Assembly (NCBI RefSeq): GCF_900188125.1
Contig: NZ_FZOW01000008.1
Location: 186,001 to 250,000 of the forward strand
Length of the DNA stretch: 64,000 nt
DNA from: Rhodococcoides kyotonense
GTDB lineage: Bacteria > Actinomycetota > Actinomycetes > Mycobacteriales > Mycobacteriaceae
Reading direction: 5' to 3'
Below are positions 7,164 through 60,960 of this stretch, in pieces. Within the stretch, counting starts at the first letter, position 1. Every line of letters begins with the position of its first letter. The translations under genes were made by a program, and so were the position numbers. The notes under the pieces were generated by a model. That model saw only the letters and a list, made by a program, of their open reading frames with translations. It was not told where the DNA came from and made no database searches.

Positions 7164-7231
7164 AAGTACACGGCGCCGCTCGGTCGCTCCGCGGGCTCCG
7201 CTCCTGCCGACTATGTATTTTCGTGCACATG
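7154..7231. repeat. family A palindromic element, copy A2 (long loop, degenerate left arm)
   Basis: The right arm is intact (CTATGTATTTTCGTGCACAT from 7211) and followed by the mini-hairpin GGCGAAGCC. The left arm is degenerate (ACGTGCATAGAAGTACAC). The loop carries the core module in reverse orientation (GGCTCCGCTCCTGCC). Unlike most copies it lies between tandem genes, just ahead of the hydrogenase operon. GCACT...AGTGC (7247-7263) spans the hypA start. Confidence 0.75.
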
Positions 7232-26311: not shown

Positions 26312-27382
26312 GTGATCTACACAACACCCGACGCCAGTCAGTCGCCGATCCCACAGTCGATGCAGGCCAGCGTGCTCAGCGGTCCACACGAGATCCGGCT
26401 GGAGGAGCGGCCGGTACCCACCCCCGCCGCCGACGAGGTTCTGGTCCGCGTCACCGCGGTCGGCGTGTGCGGATCGGATGCTCACTACTACCGCGAAGGC
26501 CGCATCGGAGACCACGTCGTCAACGGGCCGCTCGTCCTCGGACACGAGGCGGCAGGAGTGATCGTCGCCGTGGGATCCGCGATCGCCGACACACGCGTCG
26601 GCCAGCGCGTGTCGATCGAGCCGCAACGCCCCGACCCGACGAGCGCTCAGTCCCGCGCCGGCCGATACAACCTGTGCCCATCCATGGAGTTCTTCGCGAC
26701 GCCACCCATCGACGGCGCGCTCGCCGAGTACGTACTGATCCAGTCGGTCTTCGCGCACGAGGTTCCGGACGAGATCTCCGACGAAGCGGCCGCATTGTTC
26801 GAGCCGCTGTCGGTCGGAATCGCGTCGGCGCAGAAGGCGGGCATCACCGCCGGATCGAGTGTGCTGATCGCAGGCGCGGGTCCGGTCGGGCTCGTCACCG
26901 CCCAGGTCGCTCGTGCGTTCGGCGCGACCGAGGTGATCGTCAGTGATATCGACTCCGCGCGTCGGACCAACGCGTCGACGTTCGGAGCGACGCGGGTCAT
27001 CGACCCGGCCGTCGAGGATGTCACCACGCTCGAGGTCGACGCGTTCATCGATGCATCAGGCGCGCCGCGAGCCGTCGTCGACGGAATTCATGCCGTTCGT
27101 CCTGCCGGTACCGTGGTGCTCGTGGGTATGGGTGCGGCCGATTATGCGTTGCCGATCTCACTGATCCAGAATCGAGAACTGGTTCTGACGGGCGTGTTTC
27201 GGTACGCGAACACCTGGCCCATCGCACGACGGCTCGTACTGGCCGGTCTGGTCGACCTCGATGCGATGGTCACTGCCCGATTCGATCTGGCGCACGTCGA
27301 GGACGCGCTCGATGCCGACCGAGTGGCCGGCAGCATCAAAGCCGTTGTGATTCCCGGCCTTTCGAAGGAGAAAGACGCATGA
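26312..27382 (+). CDS. zinc-dependent sorbitol/xylitol-type alcohol dehydrogenase
   Basis: 356 residues from GTG 26312 (ATG 16 codons in is possible). Catalytic zinc residues are in GVCGSDAHYY and GHEAAGVI; the NAD-binding Rossmann motif is GAGPVGL. The structural-zinc lobe, normally four Cys, is reduced to a single Cys (PQRPDPTSAQSRAGRYNLC), the condition seen in sorbitol dehydrogenases that lack structural zinc. It would oxidise a polyol to a ketose with NAD+. It overlaps mannitol dehydrogenase by 4 nt. Confidence 0.83.
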   Translation: MIYTTPDASQSPIPQSMQASVLSGPHEIRLEERPVPTPAADEVLVRVTAVGVCGSDAHYYREGRIGDHVVNGPLVLGHEAAGVIVAVGSAIADTRVGQRVSIEPQRPDPTSAQSRAGRYNLCPSMEFFATPPIDGALAEYVLIQSVFAHEVPDEISDEAAALFEPLSVGIASAQKAGITAGSSVLIAGAGPVGLVTAQVARAFGATEVIVSDIDSARRTNASTFGATRVIDPAVEDVTTLEVDAFIDASGAPRAVVDGIHAVRPAGTVVLVGMGAADYALPISLIQNRELVLTGVFRYANTWPIARRLVLAGLVDLDAMVTARFDLAHVEDALDADRVAGSIKAVVIPGLSKEKDA

Positions 27383-28866
27383 AGCTGAACAAGCACACGT
27401 TGGGCGATTTCATCGAAGATGTCGCGGTACCCACCTACGATCGGTCCGACGTGCAGGTCGGGATCGTGCACTTCGGTGTCGGCGGGTTCCACCGTGCGCA
27501 TCAGGCGATGTACGTCGACCGGCTGCTGCAGCAGGGCGAGGCGTCGGACTGGGGTATCTGTGGTGTCGGCGTCCTTCCGGGAGACCGGAAGATGAAGGAC
27601 GTCATGGACGCCCAGAACTGCCTGTACACGTTGGCGCTCAAGCATTCCGACGGAACGTGGGACACCCGCATCATCGGCTCCATCGTCGAATACCTCTTCG
27701 CGCCCGACGACGCGGATGCCGTCGTCGAGAAGATGGCGGCGGAAACCACGCGCATCGTGTCGCTCACCATCACCGAGGGCGGGTACAACTTCTCTGCGAC
27801 GACGGGTGAGTTCGACACCGAGAATCCGGCCATCACGGCCGATCTGGAGGCGGGTGCTGTTCCGTCGACCACGTTCGGTCTCGTCGTCGAAGCTCTGGCG
27901 CGCCGCAAGGATCGAGGCCTGAAGCCGTTCACGATCATGTCGTGCGACAACATCGAAGGCAACGGTCACATCGCGGAGTCGACGTTCACTGCCTTTGGAC
28001 AGCTGAAGGATCCGGCGCTCGCATCGTGGCTGACCACAGAGGGAGCCTTCCCCAACTCGATGGTCGACCGCATCACGCCCGTCACCACTCCCGAAGTGGT
28101 GCAGGAGCTTTCGGAGCGATACGCGATCGACGACAGATGGCCCGTCGCCGGCGAACCGTTCACTCAGTGGGTGCTCGAGGACAAGTTCACGCTCGGCCGA
28201 CCGCCGTTCGAGGACGTCGGAGTGCAGGTCGTCGACGACGTGACGCCCTACGAACTGATGAAGCTGCGCTTGCTCAACGCGAGCCATCAGGCGCTCGCGT
28301 ACTTCGGCTACCTCAGCGGCTACCGTCTCGTGCACGAGGTGGCGCAGGACTCGCTGTTCTCCGAATTCCTGTTGGCGTACATGGACAACGAGGCCACGCC
28401 GACGCTCCAGCCGGTGCCCGGAATCGATCTCGACGAGTACAAGAAGACGCTCATCGAGCGCTTCTCGAATCCGGAGATCCGCGACACCGTCGCGCGGTTG
28501 TGCGCCGAGTCGTCGGACCGAATTCCGAAGTGGCTCTTGCCCGTCATCCGCAAGAACCTCGAGACGGGTGGGGACATCACCCGCTCGACGGCCGTCGTCG
28601 CGAGTTGGGCGCGCTACGCCGAGGGCGTCGACGAGCTCGGGCAGCCGATCGAGATCGTCGATCAGTTGAAGGACTCGCTCGTCCCACTTGCGCAGTCGCA
28701 GAAGGACGATCCGACGGCGTTCATCGCCAACCGTGCGGTGTTCGGTGACCTCGTGGACGACGAGCGTTTCGTCGCCGAGTACACGCGTCAGCTCGCGTCG
28801 CTGCACTCGGTCGGTGCGCGGCGGACTTTGGAGGCGCTCCGCGCCCATGTGCACGAAAATACATAG
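27379..28866 (+). CDS. mtlD: mannitol 2-dehydrogenase (long-chain polyol dehydrogenase)
   Basis: 495 residues. VGIVHFGVGGFHRAHQA (28-44) is the NAD(H) site. K295, N300 and H303 in YELMKLRLLNASHQALAYF match the catalytic Lys-Asn-His set of the Pseudomonas fluorescens enzyme, even in numbering as I recall it. It converts D-mannitol (or D-arabitol) to D-fructose (or D-xylulose); xylulokinase at 55657 could take D-xylulose onward. The last six residues, HVHENT, and the TAG stop are encoded by the left arm of repeat A3. Confidence 0.93.
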   Translation: MKLNKHTLGDFIEDVAVPTYDRSDVQVGIVHFGVGGFHRAHQAMYVDRLLQQGEASDWGICGVGVLPGDRKMKDVMDAQNCLYTLALKHSDGTWDTRIIGSIVEYLFAPDDADAVVEKMAAETTRIVSLTITEGGYNFSATTGEFDTENPAITADLEAGAVPSTTFGLVVEALARRKDRGLKPFTIMSCDNIEGNGHIAESTFTAFGQLKDPALASWLTTEGAFPNSMVDRITPVTTPEVVQELSERYAIDDRWPVAGEPFTQWVLEDKFTLGRPPFEDVGVQVVDDVTPYELMKLRLLNASHQALAYFGYLSGYRLVHEVAQDSLFSEFLLAYMDNEATPTLQPVPGIDLDEYKKTLIERFSNPEIRDTVARLCAESSDRIPKWLLPVIRKNLETGGDITRSTAVVASWARYAEGVDELGQPIEIVDQLKDSLVPLAQSQKDDPTAFIANRAVFGDLVDDERFVAEYTRQLASLHSVGARRTLEALRAHVHENT

Positions 28867-28891
28867 AGGGCTATGTATTTTCGTGCACATG
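28846..28891. repeat. family A palindromic element, copy A3 (short loop)
   Basis: Left arm CATGTGCACGAAAATACATA plus G (28846-28866), 4-nt loop AGGG, right arm CTATGTATTTTCGTGCACAT plus G (28871-28891): 21-bp perfect arms. Flanked by GGCGCTCCGCGCC on the left and GGGGCGTCAGCCGCC on the right. It lies between convergent mtlD and talarate/galactarate dehydratase, and the mtlD stop is inside it. Confidence 0.92.
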
Positions 28892-28896
28892 GGGCG

Positions 28897-30114
28897 TCAG
28901 CCGCCGAATTCCGCGGTCCCGATCGTCCAGGCCTTGGCCTGCTCGCTGAGAGTGAAGCCGAGGCCGGGGCGGTCGGAGAGGTGCATTCTGCCGTCACGGG
29001 TTTCGAGGTGCTCGTTGAACAGCGGGTCCAGCCAGTCGAAGTGCTCGACCCACGTCTGCAGCGGGTACACCGCGGCCAGATGAAGGTGGATCTCCATCGC
29101 GAAGTGCGGTGCGAGCTGCAGGTTGCGGTGCTCGGCCAGGCCGGCGAGCTTGAGGAACTGCGTGATGCCACCGATGCGCGGGGCGTCGGGCTGGATGATG
29201 TCGACGGAACCCGCCTCGATGAGACGAACGTGCTCGCCGACGCTGGCGAGCATCTCACCGGTCGCGATGGAGGTGTCGAAATTGGCGGCGAGTTGAGCGT
29301 GGCCTTCGGCGTCGTACGCGTCGAGCGGCTCCTCGATCCACACGAGGTCGAACTGTTCGAGGATGCGGCACATACGGTTTGCCGTCGGCCGATCCCACTG
29401 CTGGTTGGCGTCGACCATGAGTGGGACGTCGTCGCCTAGATGTTCCCTGACGGCCGTGACCCGTGCGATGTCGGTGCGCCAATCAGGCTGGCCGACTTTG
29501 AGTTTGATGCCGCCGATGCCGGCCGCCAGTGACGCGGTCGCGTTCTCGAGCACCTCTTCGATGGGCGTGTGCAGGAAACCGCCGGACGTGTTGTAGGTCT
29601 GGACCGAGTCGCGCGTCGAGCCGATGAGCTTGGCGAGCGGCAACTGAGCGCGCTTCGCCTTGAGGTCCCACAGAGCGATGTCGATGGCCGCGATCGCCTG
29701 CGTCGCAACACCACTGCGCCCGACGGACGCGCCCGCCCACTGCAGCTTGGTCCAGATCTTGCCGATGTCGCTGGGATCCTCACCGATCAGAACAGGTGCG
29801 ATCTCTTGTGCGTGCGCGAATTGCGCTGGGCCGCCGGCTCTTTTGGAGTAGCTGAACCCGATGCCCTCGTGGCCCTGTTCGGTCCGGATCTCGGCGAACA
29901 GGAATGCGACCTCGGTCATCGGCTTCTGGCGGCCGGTCAGCACCTTCGCGTCGCTGATCGGGTTCTTCAGCGGCAGCGTGATCGACGACAGCTTCACGTG
30001 CGCGATGCGATCGATCGTCGCGTCCCCGGCGGCCAGGGCCTTGATCGCGGCATCGGGTGCGGTGAGTCCGCTGGTCGGCTTCGGCGCTGTTCTGGTTCCC
30101 ACATCGATGGACAC
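28897..30114 (-). CDS. L-talarate/galactarate dehydratase-like, enolase superfamily
   Basis: 405 residues from GTG 30114, which has AAAGAGG 5 nt upstream; TTG at 30129 would add five residues. The sequence closely follows the Salmonella-type TalrD/GalrD: TYNTSGGFLHTP, GIKLKVGQPD (K204/K206), MVDANQQWD (D235, N237), WIEEPLDAYD (E261), IIQPDAPRIGGI (D310), LAPHFAMEIHLHL (H337). It dehydrates galactarate or talarate to 5-keto-4-deoxyglucarate. The C-terminal ..FGG and stop come from the GC-rich flank of repeat A3. Transcribed from the promoter at 30154-30204. Confidence 0.87.
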   Translation of the reverse strand: MSIDVGTRTAPKPTSGLTAPDAAIKALAAGDATIDRIAHVKLSSITLPLKNPISDAKVLTGRQKPMTEVAFLFAEIRTEQGHEGIGFSYSKRAGGPAQFAHAQEIAPVLIGEDPSDIGKIWTKLQWAGASVGRSGVATQAIAAIDIALWDLKAKRAQLPLAKLIGSTRDSVQTYNTSGGFLHTPIEEVLENATASLAAGIGGIKLKVGQPDWRTDIARVTAVREHLGDDVPLMVDANQQWDRPTANRMCRILEQFDLVWIEEPLDAYDAEGHAQLAANFDTSIATGEMLASVGEHVRLIEAGSVDIIQPDAPRIGGITQFLKLAGLAEHRNLQLAPHFAMEIHLHLAAVYPLQTWVEHFDWLDPLFNEHLETRDGRMHLSDRPGLGFTLSEQAKAWTIGTAEFGG

Positions 30115-30153
30115 TGCGACCTCTTTCAACGGTGATGGTGTGCTGGCTCACAG

Positions 30154-30204
30154 CCTATGACCGGTCATTCATGCACGTCCAACACTATTTGTGCATCCAT
30201 CAAT
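30154..30204 (-). promoter_or_regulatory. acid-sugar regulon promoter, site 1
   Basis: On the minus strand, TTGGAC (complement of 30177-30182), 17-bp spacer, CATAGG (30154-30159). Upstream, with GTG before the -35 and 9 further bases, is ATTGATGGAT (30195-30204). Identical spacing occurs at 42367 and 49064. It drives the dehydratase at 28897. Confidence 0.65.
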
Positions 30205-30223
30205 TCAATAACAGCAATGCCCT

Positions 30224-30267
30224 ATGTGCACGAAAGTACATAGTGGGCTATGTACTTTCGTGCACGT
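30224..30267. repeat. family A palindromic element, copy A4 (short loop, compensatory change)
   Basis: ATGTGCACGAAAGTACATAG (30224-30243), loop TGGG, CTATGTACTTTCGTGCACGT (30248-30267). Relative to the other copies both arms changed at the paired position (A to G on the left, T to C on the right), so pairing is kept. It follows the stop of the ABC ATPase at 30274, whose ..VGG C-terminus is encoded by the GCGGCGTCAGCCGCC flank. Confidence 0.9.
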
Positions 30268-30273
30268 GCGGCG

Positions 30274-31353
<1,080 letters not shown>

Positions 31354-31404
31354 GATGGAAGTACTCCTTCACCGGCAGGAACGTGCCGGACGGTCCGAGT
31401 GAGT

Positions 31405-31420
31405 GTTCATGTATGTGAAT
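31405..31420. promoter_or_regulatory. operator shared with the 34647 site
   Basis: GTTCATGTATGTGAAT, nearly identical to GTTCATATACGTGAAC at 34647-34662. It lies 52 bp upstream of the ABC ATPase and 82 bp upstream of uronate dehydrogenase. The regulator is not identified; the IclR protein at 39176 is the nearest candidate. Confidence 0.6.
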
Positions 31421-31436
31421 GTGAGTCAAGATAGTG

Positions 31437-31451
31437 ACTTCGTTTCGAAGT
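31437..31451. promoter_or_regulatory. 15-bp perfect palindrome before uronate dehydrogenase
   Basis: ACTTCGTTTCGAAGT has 6-bp perfect arms and a 3-bp centre. It lies about 50 bp upstream of the uronate dehydrogenase start and probably overlaps its promoter. It may be a second operator in the divergent region. Confidence 0.5.
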
Positions 31452-31501
31452 ATGTACTACCGTGATGCACAGCACAAGGATTTCGAGAGAAACGAGAGAC
31501 G

Positions 31502-32311
31502 ATGACACGGCTGTTGATCACCGGCGCCGCCGGGAACATGGGAAAGATGTTGCGCCCGTTGCTGGCTCGACCCGACCGGTCGGTACGACTGTTCGACATC
31601 GCCGCGATCGACGACGTCTCTGCCTCCGAGGAGTTCGTCCAAGGTTCCGTGACGGACCGCGCAGCGGTGTCCGCAGCGGTGGACGGGGTCGACGCGATTC
31701 TGCACCTCGGCGGCCTGAGCACCGAGGACTCGTGGGCGAACATTCTGTCGGTCAACGTCGACGGCACGCAGGCGATCTTCGATGCGGCGGTCACGCACGA
31801 CGTCAGCCGCGTCGTGGTCGCGTCGAGCAATCACGCCGTCGGCTTCTGGACCCACGCGGAAGCGGGTGGCTCGGATTTGCCCGGAGACGTCCCACCCCGT
31901 CCCGACGGCTTCTACGGCTGGTCGAAGGCTGCCGTAGAAGCGCTCGGTCGGATGTACCACGACCGATTCGGCATCGACGTCGTCAACCTGCGCATCGGGT
32001 CCAGCTTCGAGAAGCCGCCGAACTATCGCGGTCTGGCCAGCTGGATGTCGCCGGCCGACACGGCGCGGCTCGTCGAGGCGTCGTTGTCCGACAGCGCCAA
32101 GGGCTTTCACACGGTGTGGGGGATTTCGAAGAACGCGCGGGCATGGTGGTCGGGTGCCGAGGGTGCCGCCATCGGCTACGAACCGCAGGACGACGCCGAA
32201 CAATTCGCCGACGAGTTCCTCGCCGACCACGAGTGGACCTTCGACGACCCGATCCTCCAGCGAGTCGGCGGTGCGTTCTGCGATCACCCGCTCGGCCAGC
32301 GCATGAGGTGA
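31502..32311 (+). CDS. udh: uronate dehydrogenase (NAD+-dependent hexuronate oxidation)
   Basis: 269 residues, an extended short-chain dehydrogenase: TGAAGNMGKML (7-17) binds NAD+, VASSNHAVGFW is the characteristic substrate-loop motif of uronate dehydrogenases, and YGWSK supplies the catalytic Tyr-Lys. It oxidises D-glucuronate or D-galacturonate to aldarolactones that hydrolyse to glucarate or galactarate, feeding the dehydratases of this island. The stop overlaps the start of the family B hairpin region. Confidence 0.9.
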   Translation: MTRLLITGAAGNMGKMLRPLLARPDRSVRLFDIAAIDDVSASEEFVQGSVTDRAAVSAAVDGVDAILHLGGLSTEDSWANILSVNVDGTQAIFDAAVTHDVSRVVVASSNHAVGFWTHAEAGGSDLPGDVPPRPDGFYGWSKAAVEALGRMYHDRFGIDVVNLRIGSSFEKPPNYRGLASWMSPADTARLVEASLSDSAKGFHTVWGISKNARAWWSGAEGAAIGYEPQDDAEQFADEFLADHEWTFDDPILQRVGGAFCDHPLGQRMR

Positions 32312-32316
32312 GCGAA

Positions 32317-32353
32317 GGCGTCATTCGGTCACTCTGAGTGACCGAATGACGCC
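32317..32353. repeat. family B hairpin, perfect 18-bp inverted repeat
   Basis: GGCGTCATTCGGTCACTC, one base, GAGTGACCGAATGACGCC. It lies 5 nt after the udh stop and 16 nt before the convergent stop of the 32370 gene, so it may end both transcripts. The CATTCGGTCACTC core is shared with the tandem element at 1975-2044. No U-tract follows. Confidence 0.8.
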
Positions 32354-32369
32354 CTCGGTCCGGCAAAAG

Positions 32370-33542
32370 TCAGAAAAATTCAGCCACGATCGAACCCAGC
32401 GCGTCGAGCTGCGGACGGTTGACGAGCCCGAGGTGATAGAGGTGCAGCTCGTCCGCCCCGGCAGCGACCGTCGCGGCCACGTGTGCACCGACTTCGTCGA
32501 GTTTCTTCGGCGGAAGGACCGAAACATACGCACCGACAGCAACATCCGGGCCGACGAGCGCGCGAGTCCTCTCCACCACGGACACCGTTTCGGCCGTTCC
32601 CGGCCATGCCGACACCAGAACCGCGTCGACGTCGGACGGGGCGCTGGCGGTCAGCGCGGGCGACGGCCCGGTCTTCCATGGATCCGGATGACCGTGCAGC
32701 GTGACCCGCACGTCGGGACTGTCCGCACGGACAGCCTCGAGCACCTCCCCGCGCAGACGATCGGCATCGGCATGCCTCACCGCCAGTACCGCGTCGGCCT
32801 CGTCGTCACTCAGAACCTCACCGATGGACGCACCAGGAGACAGCATTCCCGACGCCAGTGCATCGATACCGTCGCGCAATTTGGTGACGATCTTGTCGGA
32901 ATCGACTCCAAGGAGTGCCCATTGGGACAACTCACGTGGTGTGCAGCTGATCGACATCAATGTGTCCCCGATACCCGGATACGCGCCGTCGGTCTTCTCG
33001 TGCGGCCCCACGTGCGCGAATCCCATTTGCCCACAGGTCTCCACCGATACTCCGTGCAGGTCGACGCCGCGCACGGCCTCGACCGCGAGAGTGCGGGCAT
33101 AGGCGACGACGTCAGGATGCCCCGGCGCCAACGCGTATGGGTAGCGATCGCCGAACGCGTTGACAACGGTGGCGTCGGGATGCGCGTGACCGAGGACCGT
33201 GCTGTGCGACAACACGATCCACGCATTCACGGCGATTCCCGCATCGCTCAGAATCGCGGCCGCGTCGGCGAATGCGTCGTCGGAGCCGGCCCACGACGCA
33301 GTCCGCGCCCTGATCGGCAGCTCACCCCACGCCTCCGAACGGACGGGCCGGTACAGCGCTGCGTGGTGCGCGTCGACGACCTTGTGCGACGGATGCAGCG
33401 GCGTCGCAGCCCTGGTCGAGTGGTAGCTGGCGGCGAGCGCGATTTCACGTATACCAAGCTCGAGTGCACGTTCGACGAACCGAGGATCACCCAGAACGTC
33501 CCACGGATATGCATGCGCGACGACGCGACCGACGATGGCCAT
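32370..33542 (-). CDS. conserved TIM-barrel-like protein of unknown function
   Basis: 390 residues, alanine-rich, no signal peptide. Repeating beta-alpha pattern with conserved-looking segments VAHAYPWDVLGDP, ALAASYHSTRAATPLHPSHKVVDAHHAALYRPV, WIVLSHSTVLGHAHPDATVVNAFGDRYPYAL, HGVSVETCGQMGFAHVGPHEKTDG and VTLHGHPDPW. The His- and Glu-rich strand ends suggest an enzyme of the glycosidase-like TIM-barrel type. I know homologues only as actinobacterial proteins without function. It is divergent, by 40 bp, from the hydrolase at 33583, and lies between udh and the sugar transporter; a role in processing uronic-acid-containing glycans is a guess. Confidence 0.65.
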   Translation of the reverse strand: MAIVGRVVAHAYPWDVLGDPRFVERALELGIREIALAASYHSTRAATPLHPSHKVVDAHHAALYRPVRSEAWGELPIRARTASWAGSDDAFADAAAILSDAGIAVNAWIVLSHSTVLGHAHPDATVVNAFGDRYPYALAPGHPDVVAYARTLAVEAVRGVDLHGVSVETCGQMGFAHVGPHEKTDGAYPGIGDTLMSISCTPRELSQWALLGVDSDKIVTKLRDGIDALASGMLSPGASIGEVLSDDEADAVLAVRHADADRLRGEVLEAVRADSPDVRVTLHGHPDPWKTGPSPALTASAPSDVDAVLVSAWPGTAETVSVVERTRALVGPDVAVGAYVSVLPPKKLDEVGAHVAATVAAGADELHLYHLGLVNRPQLDALGSIVAEFF

Positions 33543-33582
33543 GAAAGCCCCTAACGTTCAAAATGCAGGACGGAGTTCACAC

Positions 33583-34578
33583 ATGGGAACACAAGACAAG
33601 TCCGAATGTCTACGGTCCCGGATCCGCGATGCCCTCGGCGTGCCCTCAGAAGACCCCGCGCCGGCCGTCCACGAGCAGCGCAACTGGTCCGACAAGGGAG
33701 TCGAGGGCACCGCACTGACCTGGGGCAACACCGACGCGTGGCTGCTGCGACCTGCCGGCACGACGCAAGATCTCCCCGCCGTCCTTCTCCTCCACGGCCA
33801 CGACGGCATGAAGTTCTACGGCAAGGAGAAGGTCGCCGACGGTCCAGACCCCATCCCAGACAAGGTCGTCGAGCTGCGGAAACGCGGATACGACGGCAGA
33901 TCGGCGGCCACAACCTTGGTCCAGGCAGGCTTTGCCGTCTTGGTCCACGACGTCTTCCCGTGGGGTAGCCGCCGCGTCGAATGGGACGATTTCCCAGACA
34001 GAGCAAGGAAAGCCGCAGGCCAAGACCCGGAGAACTACGAAGCCGCCGCGCGCGAACACGAGCACGGCCTGGCCAAGATCGCTGCACTGAGCGGAACGTC
34101 CCTCGCCGGCCAGGCGCTGCGGGAAGACCTCACCGCACTCGCCGTTCTACGCAGCACACCGGGCATCGACCCCACGCGAATCGCGGCGGCGGGCTTCTCG
34201 GGCGGCGGTGCACGCGTCGTACATCTTCTGGCGGCCGCCGACCTGAAGGCCGCCGTGGTCACAGCCATGATGAGCACGTTCGCCGACGTCGCGAACGGGC
34301 ACGCCGACGACACAACGTGGCTGATGATCACCCCGGGACTCCCCGCGGTGTGCGACTGGCCCGACGTCGCCGCATCGGCCGCTCCGACGCCACTCCTGGT
34401 CCAATTCGCCTCGGACGACCGCCATTTCAGCGCCACAGGCATGTACGACGCCGAAGCAGCCCTCCAGCTCGCGTACGACGGCACCGACGCACTGACCACA
34501 CAATGGTTCCCACACGGCCACCGGTTCTCCACCGACATGCAGGTCGCGGCCACAGGCTGGCTACACGGACGAGTCTGA
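33583..34578 (+). CDS. dienelactone hydrolase-family esterase
   Basis: 331 residues from ATG 33583 (AGGACGGAG upstream); an earlier in-frame ATG at 33535 would overlap the divergent gene. LLLHGHDGMKFYGKE holds the oxyanion site, AAGFSGGGARV the nucleophile Ser, FASDDRHF the Asp and PHGHRF the His. No secretion signal. The family contains dienelactone hydrolases and acetylxylan-type esterases; in this island a lactonase or an esterase acting on uronate esters is plausible. The aldarolactone made by Udh could be a substrate, but nothing in the sequence proves it. Confidence 0.72.
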   Translation: MGTQDKSECLRSRIRDALGVPSEDPAPAVHEQRNWSDKGVEGTALTWGNTDAWLLRPAGTTQDLPAVLLLHGHDGMKFYGKEKVADGPDPIPDKVVELRKRGYDGRSAATTLVQAGFAVLVHDVFPWGSRRVEWDDFPDRARKAAGQDPENYEAAAREHEHGLAKIAALSGTSLAGQALREDLTALAVLRSTPGIDPTRIAAAGFSGGGARVVHLLAAADLKAAVVTAMMSTFADVANGHADDTTWLMITPGLPAVCDWPDVAASAAPTPLLVQFASDDRHFSATGMYDAEAALQLAYDGTDALTTQWFPHGHRFSTDMQVAATGWLHGRV

Positions 34579-34588
34579 GCCGTCACGC

Positions 34589-34662
34589 TTGACATGGCTT
34601 GTGACTGCCGTCATAGTGAATCCAGCAATTCACATAGAAGACGTGAGTTCATATACGTGAAC
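34589..34662 (+). promoter_or_regulatory. promoter and operators of the acid-sugar ABC transporter
   Basis: TTGACA (34589-34594), 17-bp spacer, CATAGT (34612-34617). Overlapping the -10 is the perfect palindrome GTGAATCCAGCAATTCAC (34616-34633). Downstream is GTTCATATACGTGAAC (34647-34662), the partner of the site at 31405. The remaining leader to the permease start at 34790 holds no gene that I can support. Confidence 0.6.
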
Positions 34663-34789
34663 GGCGAGGCAAGTATCGAGATGAACACAGAGCGACTCCC
34701 TTCACGCTGAATCTTCCGGCGTCACAGCCGATTCGACAGACCCAGACCCGCCGGCCCCATCCGGCCCCGAAAACTTCGGAGCGTCAACC

Positions 34790-35728
34790 ATGGTCACCAC
34801 CACCGAACCCAGATCGAGCGGGAAGCAGTCACCTCCCGCCGCTCGACCGCGCCGACGGCGCCGCATCCCCGCGCCGTACATCCTCATTGCACCGGTCGTC
34901 GTGCTGCTCGTCGTCTTCATCTTCTACCCGGTCGGCAGCGTCTTCTACTACAGCCTGCAGTTCTACAATCCGACCACGCCGTGGGACAACGGCTTCGCCG
35001 GGCTCGAGAACTTCAAGATGATGTTCGCCGACGACGCGTTCTGGAACAGCCTCGTCGTCACCGCCAAATGGGTCGGTGTGCAGGTGGTCTTCCAGCTGAT
35101 CCTCGGACTCGGACTGGCACTGCTCGTCAACGAGGTCTTCCGCGGCCGCGGACTCGCGCGTGCATTGGTGTTCTCGCCGTGGGCAGTCTCGGGCGTTCTC
35201 ACCACCGGCATCTGGCTGCTGATCTACAACCCATCAACCGGGTTGTTCAAGCTCCTCGGCTCCATGGGCATCGGCGACGGCACCGCCGCACCGATCGCCG
35301 ATCCCGACACCGCATTCTGGGCCACCAGCGTCGCCGAATTGTGGCGTGGTGTTCCGTTTTTCGCGATTCTGATTCTCGCCGAACTCCAGAGTGCACCGAA
35401 GGATCTGTACGAGGCCGCGAACGTCGACGGCGCAAACCGGTGGCAGCGTTTCCGATTCGTCACCCTTCCCCACCTGAAGGCAGTCATCATCCTGTCGACA
35501 CTGCTTCGTGGCGTGTGGGAGTTCAACAATGTCGACCTCCTCTACACGCTCACGTCGGGCGGACCGGCCGACGTCACGACGACACTGCCGCTATATGTTT
35601 CCCAACTCGCCACCACCGCACAGGACTTCGGATACGGCTCGGCACTGACCACCGTGGCATTCGTGATCCTGCTCTTCTGCTCGATCCTCTACTTGCGCCT
35701 CAGCAAGTTCAACAGTGACAAGGCCTGA
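34790..35728 (+). CDS. carbohydrate ABC transporter permease (MalF-type)
   Basis: 312 residues; a basic N-terminus (RPRRRRRIPAP), then six membrane spans, with the EAA loop DLYEAANVDGANRWQRFRFVTLPHL. First gene of a permease-permease-binding protein set, 5 nt before the next. The island around it degrades uronic and aldaric acids, so one of these, or an oligouronide, is the probable cargo. Confidence 0.9.
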   Translation: MVTTTEPRSSGKQSPPAARPRRRRRIPAPYILIAPVVVLLVVFIFYPVGSVFYYSLQFYNPTTPWDNGFAGLENFKMMFADDAFWNSLVVTAKWVGVQVVFQLILGLGLALLVNEVFRGRGLARALVFSPWAVSGVLTTGIWLLIYNPSTGLFKLLGSMGIGDGTAAPIADPDTAFWATSVAELWRGVPFFAILILAELQSAPKDLYEAANVDGANRWQRFRFVTLPHLKAVIILSTLLRGVWEFNNVDLLYTLTSGGPADVTTTLPLYVSQLATTAQDFGYGSALTTVAFVILLFCSILYLRLSKFNSDKA

Positions 35729-35733
35729 GAGAT

Positions 35734-36615
35734 ATGACCACTACCGCCGATCGACCGGTGATCCACACGCCGGTGCCCGAATCCGCTGACGAGTTCCGAG
35801 TACACAAGAAGAAGCCGCGCTTTCTCAGCGTCGGATTCCCTCTCGCGCTCTACCTTCTGTTCACCCTCGTTCCGTTCTACTGGATGATCGTCTTCGCGTT
35901 CCGGCCCGCAGGCTCGAACTCGATGCTCCCGTGGCCCATCACGTTCGAGCACTTCGACACCGTCTGGAACACACTGGGATTCAGCTTCTTCTTCAAGAAC
36001 AGTCTCATCGTCGCCGGACTGTCGCTCGTCCTGACAACGTTCGTCGCACTCGCGACCGGATACGCCCTGGCACGCTTCAAGTTCCGCGCCAAGATCCCCC
36101 TCGTGATGGCGCTGCTGTGCAGCCAGTTCGTCCCGGGCGCCATGCTTCTCATCCCGCTGTTCCAGGTCTTCCGCGAGATGGGTCTGGTCAACAACCTGTT
36201 CGGCCTCATCGTCGCCGACACCGTCTTCCAGCTCCCGCTCGCCGCAATGCTGATGGCAGGCTTCATCGCTCAGATCCCCGTAGAACTCGAAGAAGCAGCA
36301 ATGGTCGACGGCTGTTCCCGCATGCGTGCGTTCCGGATCATCATGCTGCCGTTGTTGCGCCCGGGGCTCATCGCGGTCGGATCGTTCGCGTTCATCGGCA
36401 GCTGGAACAACTTCCTCTTCGGCTTGATGTTCATCAGTAGCCAGGAGAAGTTCACGCTCCCTGTCGGATTGAGCTACACCATCGGCTCCTACAACGTCGA
36501 CTTCGGCGTCCTCGCTGCCGGCGGTCTCATCGCTGCGGTTCCGGTCGTCGCCGTGTTCGCCGTCATCCAGAAGTACCTCGTCCAGGGCCTCAGCGCCGGC
36601 GCAGTGAAGGGCTGA
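35734..36615 (+). CDS. carbohydrate ABC transporter permease (MalG-type)
   Basis: 293 residues with six membrane spans and the EAA loop ELEEAAMVDGCSRMRAFRIIMLPLLRPG. Partner of the permease at 34790. Only two bases separate it from the binding-protein gene, so the set is co-translated. Confidence 0.9.
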   Translation: MTTTADRPVIHTPVPESADEFRVHKKKPRFLSVGFPLALYLLFTLVPFYWMIVFAFRPAGSNSMLPWPITFEHFDTVWNTLGFSFFFKNSLIVAGLSLVLTTFVALATGYALARFKFRAKIPLVMALLCSQFVPGAMLLIPLFQVFREMGLVNNLFGLIVADTVFQLPLAAMLMAGFIAQIPVELEEAAMVDGCSRMRAFRIIMLPLLRPGLIAVGSFAFIGSWNNFLFGLMFISSQEKFTLPVGLSYTIGSYNVDFGVLAAGGLIAAVPVVAVFAVIQKYLVQGLSAGAVKG

Positions 36616-36617
36616 TC

Positions 36618-37940
36618 ATGTTGAACCACTTGACAAGAAGAACCCTGCTCGTCGGCACCGTCGCCGCCGTCGTTCTCGCCGGATGCAGCTCCGAAACATC
36701 GTTGCCCGACGGCGCACTCGGCGACCCGAACAGCGGCACACTCACGTTCTGGGACAACAATGCGGGCCCAGATCGAACTCCGTTGTACGAAGAGCTGATT
36801 CGACGGTTCGAGGCCGCCAATCCCGGCATCGACATCGAGTACGTCGGACTGCCGTCGGACAGTGCGCAGCAGAAGTATCAGACCGCCCTGGCCGGCGGCT
36901 CGGCACCCGACCTCGGAATCGTGTCGACGGCCTATCTCGCGCCGCTGGTCGCGCAGAACGCCGTCATCCCGCTCGACGATTTCGTGGCCGCGTCGCCGCA
37001 GAAGGACGAGTACGACCCCAAGATCATCGAGTCCGCGAAGGAGTCCGGAGGCGGCCAGAACCTGTACGGGCTTCCCTACACCAGCAACAACGCGACGCTC
37101 TGGTACCGCGCCGACTGGTTCGACGAGGCAGGCATCGCGCCGCCCGACACGTGGGACGAGTTCTACTCTGCCGCACAGGAACTGACCGACAAGGACGCCG
37201 GTCGATACGGCTTCACCATTCGCGGCGGCGCCGGATCGATCTACCCACTGCTGCAGTACATGTTCGCCTCCACCGGCATCACCAACTTCTTCGACGGTGA
37301 CACCTCGACGGTCAACCGGCCCGACATGGTCGACGCGATCGAGCGTTTCGCCGCGTTGTACGACGTCGACACACCCACCGCCGACGTCAACAACGGCTTT
37401 CCCCAGATGGTCGCCAGCTTCGGTGGCGGCTCTGTTGCGATGATGCAACACAATCTCGGCTCCTTGAGCAACCACGAGAAAGCATTGGGCGACAAGGTCG
37501 GAGCCGTCGCACTCCCCGTCGCGGACAACGGCGTCCGAACGGTCATGACGGACCCGTTCCCGTCGTACACGATCTTCAAGAGCAGCAAACATCAGGCCGC
37601 AGCGTGGAAGTTCCTCGAGTTCATGACGTCTCCGGACTCGCAGGCGTACTGGAACGAGAACGTCGGACAGATCCCGGTCAACACTGTGGCACGTTCGGCG
37701 CCGTCGTTCCAGAACATGCCGTCGGTCCAGGCGGCACAAGCGGTGCTCGACGACCCGAAGACCGTGCTCGTCACACCGCCGGACTACCTCGCGGCGTTCG
37801 GCAAGATCGTCCAGGTCCAGATGCTGGGCGAATGGCAGAAGGTGTTGATCGGCCAGCTCAGCGCTCAGGACTTCGCCGACGACTTCGCCGACAAGCTCGA
37901 CCGCGCAAAAGCCAAATACGATGCCCGCCAGGGTAAATAG
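36618..37940 (+). CDS. sugar ABC transporter substrate-binding lipoprotein
   Basis: 440 residues. A lipoprotein signal (LLVGTVAAVVLAGC, Cys near residue 20) is followed by a solute-binding family 1 domain: GTLTFWDNNAGPDRTPLYEELIRRFEAANPGI, LPYTSNNATLWYRADWFDEAG, ASTGITNFFDGD. It is anchored outside the membrane and hands its ligand to the two permeases. The ATPase is probably the one encoded at 30274. Confidence 0.9.
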   Translation: MLNHLTRRTLLVGTVAAVVLAGCSSETSLPDGALGDPNSGTLTFWDNNAGPDRTPLYEELIRRFEAANPGIDIEYVGLPSDSAQQKYQTALAGGSAPDLGIVSTAYLAPLVAQNAVIPLDDFVAASPQKDEYDPKIIESAKESGGGQNLYGLPYTSNNATLWYRADWFDEAGIAPPDTWDEFYSAAQELTDKDAGRYGFTIRGGAGSIYPLLQYMFASTGITNFFDGDTSTVNRPDMVDAIERFAALYDVDTPTADVNNGFPQMVASFGGGSVAMMQHNLGSLSNHEKALGDKVGAVALPVADNGVRTVMTDPFPSYTIFKSSKHQAAAWKFLEFMTSPDSQAYWNENVGQIPVNTVARSAPSFQNMPSVQAAQAVLDDPKTVLVTPPDYLAAFGKIVQVQMLGEWQKVLIGQLSAQDFADDFADKLDRAKAKYDARQGK

Positions 37941-37953
37941 GGGATCATCCATC

Positions 37954-39114
37954 ATGTCCAGCGTCATCACGGAAGTTGCCGTGCAGGTGTTCAAGACGGA
38001 GGCACGCACTGCGGTCGACTCGTACGGACACCGCCATCCAGGACCGTCGATTCAGACCACGCAAGCATTGCTGCGAATCACCGACTCCGACGGCGTGAGC
38101 GGCTACGCACTCGGAAAGCCGAACTACCTGCGTCAGGATCAGGTGGAGCAATCGTTCCGCTCGGTGTTGATCGGGACGGACCCGCTCGCCCGAGAAGCCA
38201 TCGAGAAGAAATTCGCGATTCGCCAGCGGACCAAGGCCGTCGAACTGCCCGAGCACACACTCAGCTACATCGACCAGGCTCTGTGGGACCTGGCGGGCAA
38301 CAAGTTCGACACCCCGGTGTGGAAGTTGTTGGGCGGCTCTCGGTCCGAGGTCAAGGCGTACGCCAGTACGATGTGCGGCGACGACATCGACGGTGGGCTG
38401 GCCACCCCCGAGGACTATGCGAATTTCGCTATCGACCTGAAAGCGCGCGGTTACCAAGGGATCAAGCTGCACACGTGGATGCCGCCGCTGCCGGGAGCAC
38501 CGAACGTCAGCCGCGACATCGATGCATGCGCGGCGGTACGAGATGCCGTCGGGCCAGGGTTTTCGTTGATGCTCGACGGCTATCACTGGTACTCGCGGAC
38601 CGAGGCACTCACGCTCGGTCGCGAGCTCGACCGGCTGAAGTTCGCGTGGTTCGAGGAGCCGATGGACGAGTTCTCGCTGCGCTCGTACAAGTGGCTCGCG
38701 GATCAGATCGACACCCCCGTGATCGGGCCCGAGACGACGCCCGGTCGTCACAAGTCACGGTCGGAGTGGATCGTCAACGAGGCATGCGACATCCTCCGCG
38801 TCGGAGCGATGAACGGCGGCGGCATCACACCTGCCCTCAAGACGGTGCACATGGCCGACGGCTTCGGCTTGGAGTGCGAGATCCACGGCAACGGTGCGCC
38901 GAACCTCGCGCTCGTCGGCGGCGCTCCGAATATCCAGTGGTACGAGCGCGGACTGCTGCACCCGCACACCGATTACGACTGGGTTCCGCCGCACCTGAAG
39001 TCCATCGTCGACGCCATCGACTCGAACGGCATCGTGCAGATGCCGGAGCGCCCGGGCCTGGGTGAGGAGTTCGACCACGAGTTCATCTCGGCGAATCTCG
39101 TCGGCGAATACTGA
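37954..39114 (+). CDS. enolase-superfamily (mandelate racemase group) acid-sugar dehydratase, specificity unknown
   Basis: 386 residues from ATG 37954, 13 nt after the binding-protein gene. Metal ligands D208 (LMLDGYHWY), E234 (WFEEPMDE) and E260 (GPETTPG) are present, with a base pair K171-x-H173 (GIKLHTWMPP) and H311 (EIHGNGAPN). The K-x-H motif differs from the K-x-K of the other three dehydratases in the island. The family dehydrates or epimerises sugar acids; co-transcription with the transporter suggests the substrate is the imported compound. Confidence 0.8.
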   Translation: MSSVITEVAVQVFKTEARTAVDSYGHRHPGPSIQTTQALLRITDSDGVSGYALGKPNYLRQDQVEQSFRSVLIGTDPLAREAIEKKFAIRQRTKAVELPEHTLSYIDQALWDLAGNKFDTPVWKLLGGSRSEVKAYASTMCGDDIDGGLATPEDYANFAIDLKARGYQGIKLHTWMPPLPGAPNVSRDIDACAAVRDAVGPGFSLMLDGYHWYSRTEALTLGRELDRLKFAWFEEPMDEFSLRSYKWLADQIDTPVIGPETTPGRHKSRSEWIVNEACDILRVGAMNGGGITPALKTVHMADGFGLECEIHGNGAPNLALVGGAPNIQWYERGLLHPHTDYDWVPPHLKSIVDAIDSNGIVQMPERPGLGEEFDHEFISANLVGEY

Positions 39115-39162
39115 GTTCGTCGTGAAAAGTGCGTCCGTGGGTGAAACATCGTTCGAAATGAG

Positions 39163-39173
39163 GGACACTGTCC
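39163..39173. promoter_or_regulatory. palindrome at the IclR gene start
   Basis: GGACACTGTCC, 5-bp arms round one base, lies just ahead of the ATG at 39176, inside a wider ATGAGG...CCTCAT dyad (39158-39177). A protein bound here would block translation initiation or transcription of the IclR gene, as in autoregulation. Confidence 0.4.
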
Positions 39174-39175
39174 TC

Positions 39176-39961
39176 ATGGTGAACGACGTCAAAGAGGCCA
39201 CTACCCCGGTGAAGTCCGCCGAACGCACCATCCACATTCTCGAGACGTTGGCGGCGTCGCCGACGCGCATGAGTCTGGGCGAACTGCAGGAGGCGTGCAA
39301 GTACCCGCGATCGAGCTTGCACGCGCTCCTGCGCACCCTGAAGGACCTGCGGTGGATCGAGGCCGACGAGTCCGGTTCGCGCTACGGCATCGGAACGCAC
39401 GCACTGCTGACCGGCACGTCCTACCTCGACAAGGATTCGGTGGTGGGGCGTGCTGCGGCCGTGCTCGAGGCTCTACGTTCCGATGTGCGGCACACCGTTC
39501 ACTTCGCCCGACGTGACGAGGACCAGGTCATCTACCTCGCCAGCCGCGGGTCGAAGCTCGAGGTCAGGCGCATGCACCGCGTCGGCCGCAAGTTGCCGTG
39601 TCACGTCACCGCGTTGGGCCAGGCGCTGCTCGCGGAGCTGACCACCGACGAGGTCACGCAGCTGCTCCCCCAGAAGCTCGAGCGGTACACCGACAACACC
39701 ATCGTCGACCGGGATGCACTGATCGCCGAGCTCGCCGAGGTTCGCAAGCGCGGGTGGTCGCTCGAGCAGGAACAGGGCACGCCCGGTGTCGTCTGTATCG
39801 CCACTGTCGTGCCCTATCGAATTCCGGCTACCGACGCATTGAGCGTGTCGATGCCGGCGGAGGTGGCGTCGTACCCGGGTGAGTTGGAGCGGATCGCGGG
39901 TGTACTGACCAAGCACGCCGACGCGTGGGCCCGGGAGCTCAGGGCCGAAGGCGTGCGGTAG
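39176..39961 (+). CDS. IclR-family transcriptional regulator
   Basis: 261 residues from ATG 39176; ATG at 39158 is an alternative. The winged helix (SAERTIHILETLAASPTRMSLGELQEACKYPRSSLHALLRTL) is followed by the IclR effector domain (RVGRKLPCHVTALGQALLAEL, SLEQEQGTPGVVCIATVV). It sits at the end of the transporter/dehydratase operon and is the natural candidate for the operators at 31405, 34616 and 34647. The stop is followed at once by GGGGGCTTCGCCCC and repeat A5. Confidence 0.88.
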   Translation: MVNDVKEATTPVKSAERTIHILETLAASPTRMSLGELQEACKYPRSSLHALLRTLKDLRWIEADESGSRYGIGTHALLTGTSYLDKDSVVGRAAAVLEALRSDVRHTVHFARRDEDQVIYLASRGSKLEVRRMHRVGRKLPCHVTALGQALLAELTTDEVTQLLPQKLERYTDNTIVDRDALIAELAEVRKRGWSLEQEQGTPGVVCIATVVPYRIPATDALSVSMPAEVASYPGELERIAGVLTKHADAWARELRAEGVR

Positions 39962-39974
39962 GGGGCTTCGCCCC

Positions 39975-40050
39975 ATGTGCACGAAAATACATAGCGGCAG
40001 GAGTGGAGCCTGCGGAACGACCCGAAGGCACTATGTATTTTCGTGCACAT
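39975..40050. repeat. family A palindromic element, copy A5 (long loop)
   Basis: ATGTGCACGAAAATACATAG (39975-39994) and CTATGTATTTTCGTGCACAT (40031-40050), perfect 20-bp arms. The 36-nt loop holds the GCAGGAGTGGAGCCTGCGGA core. GGGGGCTTCGCCCC precedes the left arm. It lies between the convergent IclR and 2-hydroxyacid dehydrogenase genes; the dehydrogenase stop and its HVHENT tail are in the right arm. Confidence 0.92.
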
Positions 40051-40975
40051 GGCGGATGCGCTGCGCGATATCGCCTACCCGCCCGACGAACGTGTGATGC
40101 GTGACGCCCGACGAGTGCGGGGTCATCAGGATGTTCGGAAGCTCCTCGAAGGCAAGAGAACTCGGCTTCCCGACGCCATCAGGCCCCGGGTACCGGTACC
40201 AGACATCGATGGCGGCAGCGGCGATGGTCCTGTCCGACAACGCGTCGAACAGTGCCTGCTCCTGAACCAACGGTCCGCGACCGACGTTCACCAGGACCCC
40301 GTCCGGCCCGAGAGCCGCCAGTTCGGACGCGCCGATCATCCCTCGCGTGGCGTCGGTCAGCGGCGCCGATACGACGACGACGTCGGACCACTCCATCAGC
40401 TTTCCGAGATCCGAAATATCGGAGTGCCATTCGAGTGCACCGTCGGCGTTCCCGCTGCCGGTCACCGCAGCCCCGACGCATCCGTACGCCTCGAACAACG
40501 CCCACGCCCTCTGGCCGATGTGCCCGAACCCGACGAATCCGATTCGAGCGCCGCTCAGCGACAACGGCTGCGGGATCGACGGGTCGTAGACCGACGTCTC
40601 GAACAGTCCGGTCCGCAGGGCCCGGTCCTGCGACAAGAATTTACGACGCATCATGACCGTGGCCGCGACGATGTACTCGGCTATCGACTGCTCGTGGTGA
40701 AAGGTGTTGCAGACCTGAACATCCGGCCCGAGTCCTGATCGGTCGACGTTGTCCGTCCCGGCGCCGACGACGTGCACCATCTTCAGCTGTGGAGCAGCCT
40801 TGCCCATCGCGGCGCTGAACTTGCCGCCGACGTAGACGTCCGCGTCGGCCAACTCGGTGATCACCGCAGCCTCGTCGAACGGCACGACCCAGACCACGTC
40901 GGCATCATCGGGGAGCTCGCGAAGGAACTGCTCCTTGTGCGGCAGTACGTTTCGATCACCTACGACGATCTTCAT
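40031..40975 (-). CDS. D-isomer-specific 2-hydroxyacid dehydrogenase
   Basis: 314 residues from ATG 40975, overlapping the glucarate dehydratase stop by 4 nt. NAD site [13 protein letters not shown]; active-site Arg in [10 protein letters not shown], and catalytic His in TPHSSG. It would interconvert a 2-oxoacid and a D-2-hydroxyacid. No such step is needed in the standard glucarate route, so it may reduce a side product such as hydroxypyruvate or tartronate semialdehyde. The C-terminal HVHENT and stop are repeat-derived (A5), identical to mtlD. Confidence 0.85.
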
Positions 40976-55595: not shown

Positions 55596-55609
55596 GGGGG
55601 CTGCGCCCC

Positions 55610-55653
55610 ATGTGCACGAAAATACATAGTGGGCTATGCATTTTCGTGCACAT
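55610..55653. repeat. family A palindromic element, copy A6 (short loop)
   Basis: ATGTGCACGAAAATACATAG (55610-55629), loop TGGG, CTATGCATTTTCGTGCACAT (55634-55653), one mismatch. Flanked by GGGGGCTGCGCCCC (left) and GGGCTACGCCCC (right). It sits between the convergent TSUP and xylulokinase genes; the xylulokinase stop is the CTA in the loop of the right flank hairpin. Confidence 0.92.
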
Positions 55654-55656
55654 GGG

Positions 55657-57045
55657 CTACGCCCCTTCCGTCAGATCCCGGACCTCCGCGTATCTTTCGC
55701 GGATCGCCGGTGTCGGATCTGCCTCGTACGTCCGAGCGGGCGCCGACGCCCACTGCGGCGGTTCGGGCGTACCGGCGAGGGCCCATGCTGCCTGACGCGC
55801 CGCGCCGTCGGCGACATATTCGCCCGGCTCCGGAACCACAACGGGCACACCGAGTATCGCGGGGGCCAACTCGCGCAAGGCCTCCGATTTCGCGCCGCCG
55901 CCGACGAGCAGAACGCGTCGTGTCTCGATTCCCGCGTTGCGCAGTGCATCGATACCGTCGGCCAATCCGCACAGCAGACCTTCGACCGCGGCCCTCGCGA
56001 GATGCCCGGGCGTCGAATTCCCCAGTCGGAGACCATGAATGGCGCCCGACGCATCGGGACGGTTCGGCGTTCGTTCGCCTTCGAGGTACGGGACGAGAAC
56101 GAGCCCCTCGCTGGGGCTGGACAACGCCAACCTGGACAGTTCCGCGTGATCGACTCCCAGCAGCGACGCGGTCGCGTCGAGCACCCGCGCGGCATTCAAC
56201 GTGCAGACCAGAGGCAACTGCCGTCCCGTCGCGTCGGCGAATCCGGCGATGATGCCCGACGGGTCCGCCGCCGCGACATCGGTGACCGCGGACACGACCC
56301 CCGACGTGCCGATGGACACGACGACGTCGCCGACACCAGCAGCGAGCCCGAGCGCCGCCGCGGCATTGTCACCGGTGCCGGGCCCGATGAGCGCCCCGCC
56401 CGCGGTCTCGCCGATGCGCTCGGACGGTCCAGCCACTCGCGGCAGCTGCGGCTGTCGGCCTCGCATACCCAGCTCGAGCAGGTCCCGTCGATACGCGTTC
56501 GCTCCTGCAGAGAAGTAGCCGGTGCCGCTGGCGTCACCACGATCGGTGGCCAACGAGTCGAGTCCCGACGCGCCCCCGAGCTGCCAACTCAGCCAATCGT
56601 GCGGAAGACACACGGCCGCAGCGCGATCCGCGCTCGTAGGTTCGTTGTCCGCGAGCCATCGCAGTTTGCTGACGGTGATCGATGCAAGAGGAACCACGCC
56701 GACCGCGTCGGCCCATTCCTGCGCGCCCAACTCGTCGACCAGATCGCGGCCGGACGACGCCGACCTGGTGTCGTTCCACAGCAAAGCCGGACGTACGACG
56801 CTTCCCTGCTCGTCGAGACAGATCATCCCGTGCTGCTGAGCACCGACGGCCACGGCGTCGACGTCACCCAGACCACCCGCGTCGGCGATCGCCGTCTCGA
56901 GCGCGTCCTTCCAGACCGCGGGGTCGATCTCGGTACCGTCCGGATGCTTCGCCCGCCCGCTGCGAACCACCTCACCCGAATCTGCATCGCGGACAAAGAC
57001 TTTGCACGATTGAGTGGACGAATCGATACCTGCGACGAGAGCCAA
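55657..57045 (-). CDS. xylB: xylulokinase (FGGY family)
   Basis: 462 residues from TTG 57045, preferred because GGAAGG lies 9 nt upstream; the ATG at 57054 is immediately adjacent to that site. [11 protein letters not shown] is the N-terminal phosphate-1 motif, [10 protein letters not shown] and LLWNDTRS the substrate site, [13 protein letters not shown] the phosphate-2 motif and [25 protein letters not shown] the FGGY signature. It phosphorylates D-xylulose, which the polyol module (27379) can make from arabitol or xylitol. Confidence 0.92.
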
Positions 57046-60894: not shown

Positions 60895-60960
60895 GTGCAT
60901 CTCCTGAAGTTGCGATCGATGAGAACCTCGCACTGTTTCTACCAAACCGAGCGATCGGTC

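What the first reader, a model, noticed from the sequence alone, without database searches (positions are those of the whole stretch)
28846..40050. Repeat-derived C-termini: two unrelated enzymes end in the same HVHENT tail
Seen: mannitol dehydrogenase (stop 28866) and the 2-hydroxyacid dehydrogenase (stop at 40031) both terminate ..HVHENT-stop because a family A arm supplies the last codons. The hemerythrin stop (7161-7163) lies in a degenerate arm. The stops of xylulokinase, the talarate-type dehydratase and the 30274 ATPase lie in the GC-rich flank hairpins, the last two giving ..GG tails. Inference: the element carries stop codons, inserts at or captures gene ends, and rewrites C-termini while ending translation, somewhat like coding palindromic elements known elsewhere.
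Basis: partly seen in the sequence, partly recalled or inferred. Interest (0 to 1): 0.8.

Follow-up and report, generated by a model that had tools for sequence, protein, structure and literature searches.

The report
Palindromic repeats that end genes
In this soil bacterium a short mirror-image DNA repeat sits directly at the stop codons of many genes and often supplies the stop itself, so that at least twenty proteins end in the same six amino acids; repeats that end genes were known before, but this family is a new variant.

Summary
Mannitol dehydrogenase and the 2-hydroxyacid dehydrogenase both end HVHENT because a 20-nt palindrome arm supplies the last codons and the TAG. The genome has 127+125 such arms at up to 3 mismatches, i.e. 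about 126 elements. Of 70 sampled, 42 lie between convergent, 26 between tandem and 2 between divergent genes. Of 110 gene 3' ends facing them, 109 stop within -20 to +17 nt of the arm and 29 use the arm's TAG. None of 19 orthologues in a repeat-poor relative has the tail. Relatives carry other arm variants, often at the same sites, with their own tails such as HVSANT or HVSGNT. The element also has outer mini-hairpins preceded by TAG, a second stop source. Architecture and position match GTAG-tagged REP dimers, already reported to supply TAG stops (PMC3733652), but no REP-associated transposase was found. Best reading: a genus-restricted, REP-like palindromic repeat that persists where it leaves an in-frame stop; the tails are probably by-products. 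How it spreads is unknown.

The parts
28847..28890 (.). Element with both arms (28847-28866 and 28871-28890); its left arm codes VHENT-stop of mannitol dehydrogenase (H codon starts at 28846)
28891..28905 (-). Right outer hairpin of that element, holding the TGA stop of the talarate-type dehydratase
27379..28866 (+). Mannitol dehydrogenase, ends LEALRAHVHENT
   Evidence: 29 orthologues
39959..39974 (+). TAG stop plus 13-nt hairpin at the left end of the element (TAGGGGGCTTCGCCCC)
39975..40050 (.). Element with arms 39975-39994 and 40031-40050 and a 36-nt loop insert of another repeat; right arm ends the 2-hydroxyacid dehydrogenase
40031..40975 (-). 2-hydroxyacid dehydrogenase, ends [11 protein letters not shown]
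   Evidence: 25 orthologues
4627..4704 (.). Element with arms 4627-4646 and 4685-4704 and a long loop insert, between convergent genes
7154..7230 (.). Element with a degenerate left arm (7154-7173) holding the hemerythrin stop 7161-7163 and an intact right arm 7211-7230
30224..30282 (.). Element (arms 30224-30243, 30248-30267) and outer hairpin 30268-30282 with the TGA stop of the ABC ATPase 30274-31353
55596..55668 (.). Element (arms 55610-55629, 55634-55653) with both outer hairpins; the xylulokinase stop lies in the right one

Best explanation
A high-copy, genus-restricted, REP-like palindromic repeat. The unit reads (G)TAG - small GC-rich hairpin - 20-nt arm - 4-nt loop - inverted arm - hairpin - CTA(C). 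It occupies gene 3' ends, mostly between convergent genes, and is tied to the stop codon itself. It can end a gene at the outer TAG, at a stop inside the hairpin region, or at the TAG at the inner end of the arm (in relatives also at a TGA near the outer end of the arm). Where the native stop remains, the element lies just behind it. Where the native stop was lost, or the element landed in the last codons, the arm's TAG ends translation and leaves HVHENT. Genes running through an arm without a stop were not seen in the sample, most simply because selection removes them. The tails are by-products of the DNA sequence. Shown: anatomy, positions, stop use, rewritten ends, an element-free relative at single sites. 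Inferred: selection as the filter, mobility by an unknown enzyme, by-product status of the tail.
For: 109 of 110 facing gene ends stop within -20..+17 nt of the arm, while in 26 tandem cases the distance to the next start ranges from -18 to 870 nt. Of 32 ends at least 3 nt inside an arm, 29 are in the frame with the TAG, P 2e-11 against one third. Stops 9-17 nt before the arm are TAG in 33 of 38, against 21 of 127 elsewhere. TAG plus a 13-nt hairpin: 17 of 17 beside an arm, 0 in the reversed control. Outer hairpins pair in 15 of 18 with 8 different stems. None of 19 G036 orthologues has the tail. G006 lacks the element at L095, where both proteins differ here. Other arm variants with their own tails occur in relatives. 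Translated and untranslated arms share one consensus. The arm pattern is confined to this genus in a 151-genome family sample at up to 2 mismatches.
Against: No transposase or target-site duplication was found; Y1 transposases are absent from this genome. Many sites are shared with relatives that carry other arms, which fixed structures would also explain. The stem sequences of the outer hairpins vary, unlike a freshly copied element. Genes away from elements come partly from element-centred stretches, so the background is not a random genome sample. One G006 gene reads through a whole element (L279). The position-20 G of the arm is intact in 29 of 29 translated arms and 66 of 75 untranslated ones, but that contrast is circular because the class is defined by the stop.
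Confidence: 0.75

Rival explanations
1. The palindromes are the cell's own bidirectional 3'-end structures (terminators or mRNA 3' protectors), fixed in place and kept alike by gene conversion; they are not mobile.
For: Positions at 3' ends, strong folds with z from -5.2 to -10.9 in 6 of 6 folded, sites shared with relatives that have other arms, 3 of 46 orthologous flanks identical beside different arms against 58 of 6348 non-orthologous.
Against: G006 and other relatives lack an element at single sites where this genome has one (L095, L111, L112). No U-tract terminator is scored at the elements of 27000-42000. In 29 ends the ribosome would reach into the hairpin. A conserved loop and arm sequence is not needed for a terminator.
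Confidence: 0.13
2. The arms are binding sites of a DNA-binding protein that marks gene ends.
For: A long palindrome with a preferred sequence in each genome.
Against: Several arm variants coexist in this genome; the outer hairpins and the stop codons have no place in this reading.
Confidence: 0.06
3. The HVHENT tail is selected as a peptide tag (for example for turnover or location).
For: 21 sampled proteins end exactly HVHENT, and relatives have similar HVxxN tails.
Against: Untranslated arms have the same sequence as translated ones. The proteins are unrelated and the relatives' tails differ, including single-residue ends at the TGA variant.
Confidence: 0.04
4. Chance or a gene-calling artefact.
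For: Gene ends were called with a home-made gene finder.
Against: 0 matches in 100 shuffles, 0 in the reversed genome control; orthologue alignments fix the reading frames; Pfam domains were found for 9 of the 10 frames scanned, the tenth being a mechanical ORF.
Confidence: 0.01

Closest known systems
GTAG-tagged REPs and REP dimers (Di Nocera et al. 2013, PMC3733652; section 15 read, other passages and outline seen)
   Same: Short palindromes at 3' ends; convergent ones mostly under 20 bp from both ORFs; ends tagged GTAG that often give the TAG stop to flanking ORFs; inverted pairs.
   Different: Here a conserved 20-nt palindrome lies between the tagged hairpins, hairpin stems vary, a second stop in the arm leaves a fixed tail, no RAYT was found; the words Actinobacteria, Mycobacterium and Rhodococcus do not occur in the main text of that paper.
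REPINs with RAYT transposases (PMC3116915, search listing only; otherwise recalled)
   Same: Inverted pair of tagged hairpins, high copy number, genome-specific sequence.
   Different: No RAYT in this genome or, by Pfam Y1_Tnp, in 36 of 37 genus genomes; the one Y1 gene is IS200/IS605-like.
Coxiella QMITEs (PMC5896051, passages seen)
   Same: Repeats overlapping 3' ends of genes; one in-frame copy gives a C-terminal extension.
   Different: QMITEs have MITE features; no TIR-bearing transposon or duplication was found here, and the arm here supplies a stop repeatedly at the same place.
Rickettsia palindromic elements (named in PMC3733652 section 15; otherwise recalled)
   Same: Palindromic repeats that become protein sequence.
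   Different: Described inside genes with the frame kept open; here the repeat sits at the end and closes the frame.

Membership tests
GTAG-tagged REP superfamily | Short stem-loop with an unpaired GTAG at one end | tested here: inconclusive
   TAG abuts the hairpin in 33 of 38 such ends and G precedes the stop in 23 of 38, against 35 of 127 background; 12 of 17 TAG-hairpins have GTAG. About 65% of the 110 ends have no stop in this class, so the tag is not universal.
GTAG-tagged REP superfamily | Located at 3' ends, under 20 bp from both ORFs when convergent | tested here: met
   109 of 110 facing ends
GTAG-tagged REP superfamily | Often found near RAYT genes | tested here: not met
   No Y1_Tnp in this genome; 1 of 37 in the genus, IS200/IS605-like
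REPIN / RAYT system | A RAYT gene in the genome | tested here: not met
MITE | Target-site duplication and terminal inverted repeats shared with a full transposon | not tested
   Orthologous sites are too diverged to see a duplication; no genome-wide search for a transposon with these ends was made. No single unpaired arm was seen among the 70 sampled elements.
Rho-independent terminator | GC-rich hairpin followed by a U-tract | tested here: not met
   No scored site at the elements of 27000-42000; 3 found elsewhere there against 7.2 expected
Known RNA family | Match to an Rfam model at the elements | tested here: not met
   Only msiK RNA at 31358-31413 in the window

The most novel reading that the evidence does not exclude
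The element is a two-part stop cassette whose position and outer hairpins are inherited at a site while its 20-nt arms are exchanged for each species' own version. The arms of a whole genome would then evolve in concert without RAYT, by a process (gene conversion at hairpins or cassette exchange) that I have not seen described for REPs, so that C-terminal tails of many proteins change together when a species' arm changes (HVHENT here, HVSANT or HVSGNT in relatives).
Probability: 0.25. Interest if true: 0.7.

Novelty: new variant of a known kind. Interest (0 to 1): 0.5.

Why it matters
It is a clean case in which a repeat, not the gene, decides where many proteins end, with relatives that serve as controls. 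It makes testable whether REP-like repeats can spread without a RAYT, whether selection on frame alone explains why such repeats hug stop codons, and how free C-terminal sequence is. It also warns annotators that a shared C-terminal motif in this genus is a DNA repeat and not a protein domain.

Tried and rejected
Chance: rejected. Hairpins as ordinary features of gene ends: not supported for the TAG + 13-nt type, since all 17 found in the window and fetched stretches of this genome are beside arms; outside the 64-kb window those stretches are element-centred, so this is not a whole-genome statement.

RAYT-driven REPIN: not supported for this genome. The one Y1 gene in the genus (L161, G030) has no family palindrome in its 3.4-kb locus.

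TAG mutated to a sense codon as the general origin of the HVHENT class: AAG, CAG or GAG stands at the tag position in 11 of 29, against 115 of 1270 background codons (P 2e-5). By my reading of the orthologues, at WL, L001R, L022L, L093L and L116R that position is a native coding position, so this can be at most one route.

Automatic detection of palindromes in orthologues was unreliable: it missed plainly visible arms (L267, L273, L242) and flagged coding sequence (L280, L284). Its tallies are not used; the sequences were read by eye.

In one search the 46 flank comparisons come from 23 locus pairs, which include one duplicate locus (L062 repeats L032) and four palindromes of other kinds (L034, L065, L067, L255); they were not dropped.

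A pattern scan of genome contigs with the whole exact palindrome found nothing, but the record of this genome may be left out there. A plasmid search gave only relatives of the dehydratase. Nine paper searches were made: searches showed nothing on this family in their listings; 23 led to PMC5896051, 38 to PMC3733652 and PMC1590033 (passages); one gave nothing used. No supplements were read.
Full report
What was checked. The window lies in genome G000 (6.31 Mb, 50 contigs, C6:186001-250000). Equal contig lengths place its relatives among Rhodococcoides / Rhodococcus of the fascians group: G006 matches R. kyotonense KB10, G018 Rhodococcus sp. KRD197, G031 a metagenome-assembled Rhodococcus (nzgw98), G036 R. 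yunnanensis NBRC 103083. Both proteins named in the finding end in HVHENT, coded CAT GTG CAC GAA AAT ACA TAG, and the last 20 bases are an exact palindrome arm.

The element. Seventy elements (6 in the window, 64 in fetched stretches of the same genome) share one plan: outer mini-hairpin, arm ATGTGCACGAAAATACATAG, a 4-nt loop that is NGGG or its complement in 56 of 70, the inverted arm, outer mini-hairpin. Four of 70 have a 36-38-nt loop; in the window's two such copies it is another repeat (GGCAGGAGTGGAGCC..). The outer hairpins are GC-rich, typically 13 nt. A hairpin of 4 or more pairs abuts the arm in 76 of 140 flanks, against 4.4% of shuffled flanks. Of 18 flanks chosen only because the stop lies 13 nt from the arm, 15 pair fully, with 8 different stems, against a mean of 2.7 when halves are permuted.

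Where it sits. Of the 70, 42 lie between convergent genes, 26 between tandem genes, 2 between divergent genes. In 110 cases a gene's 3' end faces the element; in 109 the stop codon ends between 20 nt inside the arm and 17 nt before it, the exception lying 73 nt away. In the 26 tandem cases the distance to the downstream start ranges from -18 to 870 nt, so the element is tied to the stop codon and not just squeezed into short gaps.

Stops supplied. Of the 110 ends, 29 stop at the arm's TAG, 3 at a stop mutated into that copy's arm, 3 straddle the arm's edge and 75 stop before it. Of the 32 at least 3 nt inside the arm, 29 are in the frame that meets the TAG (P 2e-11 against one third), and no sampled gene passes through. 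Stops 9-17 nt before the arm are TAG in 33 of 38, against 21 of 127 for genes away from elements, which mostly use TGA (P 2e-15). Stops 1-6 nt before the arm are TAG in only 12 of 36, so many of these are likely native. TAG followed by a fully paired 13-nt hairpin was found 17 times in the window and fetched stretches, always beside an arm, never in the reversed control; G precedes it in 12 of 17. The string GTAGGCGCCTTCGGCGC occurs 30 times in 7 of 37 genus genomes, with one reversed-control hit. So the element seems to bring stops of its own. The frame bias shows that stop-less copies are missing, not why; selection is the simplest reason.

Orthologues. None of 29 mannitol dehydrogenase orthologues (of 36 genomes with a relative) and none of 25 2-hydroxyacid dehydrogenase relatives read ends HVHENT. 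For 24 of the 29 arm-ended genes I searched four relatives with one composite query. In G036, which has almost no such repeats (0 arms, 1), 19 orthologues were read: none has the tail; homology ends at the arm or up to 9 residues before it (once one residue inside, by a chance H); the proteins here are between 9 residues shorter and 8 longer, median 5 longer. At L097 and L095R native last residues are replaced, not merely extended. At L095 in G006 the two convergent genes overlap at their stop codons without an element, while here an element has replaced roughly 30 bases, by eye, and changed both proteins.

Other arms, same sites. At many of these sites relatives carry a palindrome with a different arm. 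Read by eye, eight orthologues end in the same kind of tail from another arm: HVHKNT, HVSANT, RVHGNP, HVSRNV and LVRANA in G006, HVSGNT twice in G018, HVSANT in G031. Others stop at a TGA near the outer end of the arm (ATG TGA), which the arm here lacks. One G006 gene reads through a whole element (L279). A looser arm pattern occurs in 31 of 37 genus genomes, with 8 reversed-control hits in all; at up to 2 mismatches it was found in 4 of 151 family genomes, all 4 of this genus. Three of 46 orthologous outer flanks are identical over 13 bases while the arms beside them differ in 7-9 of 20; among non-orthologous pairs 58 of 6348 differ by at most one base. This hints that arms are exchanged in place, but three cases are few, and independent insertion at favoured sites is not excluded.

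Comparison with known kinds. Di Nocera and colleagues (PMC3733652; section 15 read, outline and passages) describe GTAG-tagged REPs mostly under 20 bp from both 3' ends of convergent ORFs, whose ends often give the TAG stop to flanking ORFs. The phenomenon is thus known in kind. Coxiella QMITEs overlap the 3' ends of genes and once give a 33-residue extension (PMC5896051, passages). What differs here: a conserved 20-nt palindrome between the tagged hairpins, variable hairpin stems, a second stop with a fixed tail in 29 of 110 facing ends, and no RAYT found. Hence 'new variant of a known kind'. The listings showed no paper on this family; that library holds openly licensed papers only.

How it probably works. 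An element comes to a gene end by an unknown route. Copies that leave a stop in frame survive: behind the native stop, at the outer TAG, in the hairpin, or at the arm's TAG. The tails follow from the DNA, since untranslated arms have the same consensus as translated ones. A role as a 3'-end RNA structure is possible: six of six folds are far more stable than shuffled sequence (z -5.2 to -10.9). But no U-tract terminator is scored at the elements of 27000-42000, and in genes ended by the arm the ribosome would occupy the hairpin (inference).

Noticed in passing
1978-2030 and 32308-32360: A second palindromic repeat (GTGACCGAATGACGCC..) at two places at or beside convergent gene ends.
   Followed up: no
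4650-4678, 7182-7211, 39996-40024, 60955-61021: Another repeat (GGCAGGAGTGGAGCCTGCGGAACGACC) that occurs on its own and inside the loop of three of the six window elements.
   Followed up: partly
31358-31413 (-): msiK leader RNA (RF01747) upstream of the ABC ATPase 30274-31353.
   Followed up: no
57121-57176: A 28-bp inverted repeat with no gap between its arms, 93% complementary.
   Followed up: no
L034, L065, L067 (G027, G009): A different palindromic repeat (AGTGGCACGGTTAGGGCCCC..) fills the same two gene-end sites in other relatives.
   Followed up: no
L066 (G031) and L304 (G031): Short tandem arrays behind gene ends: ATGTGAGATCGTGGGCCTCCGGCCC units and CAAACGCACGTGCTTTTGCG units.
   Followed up: no
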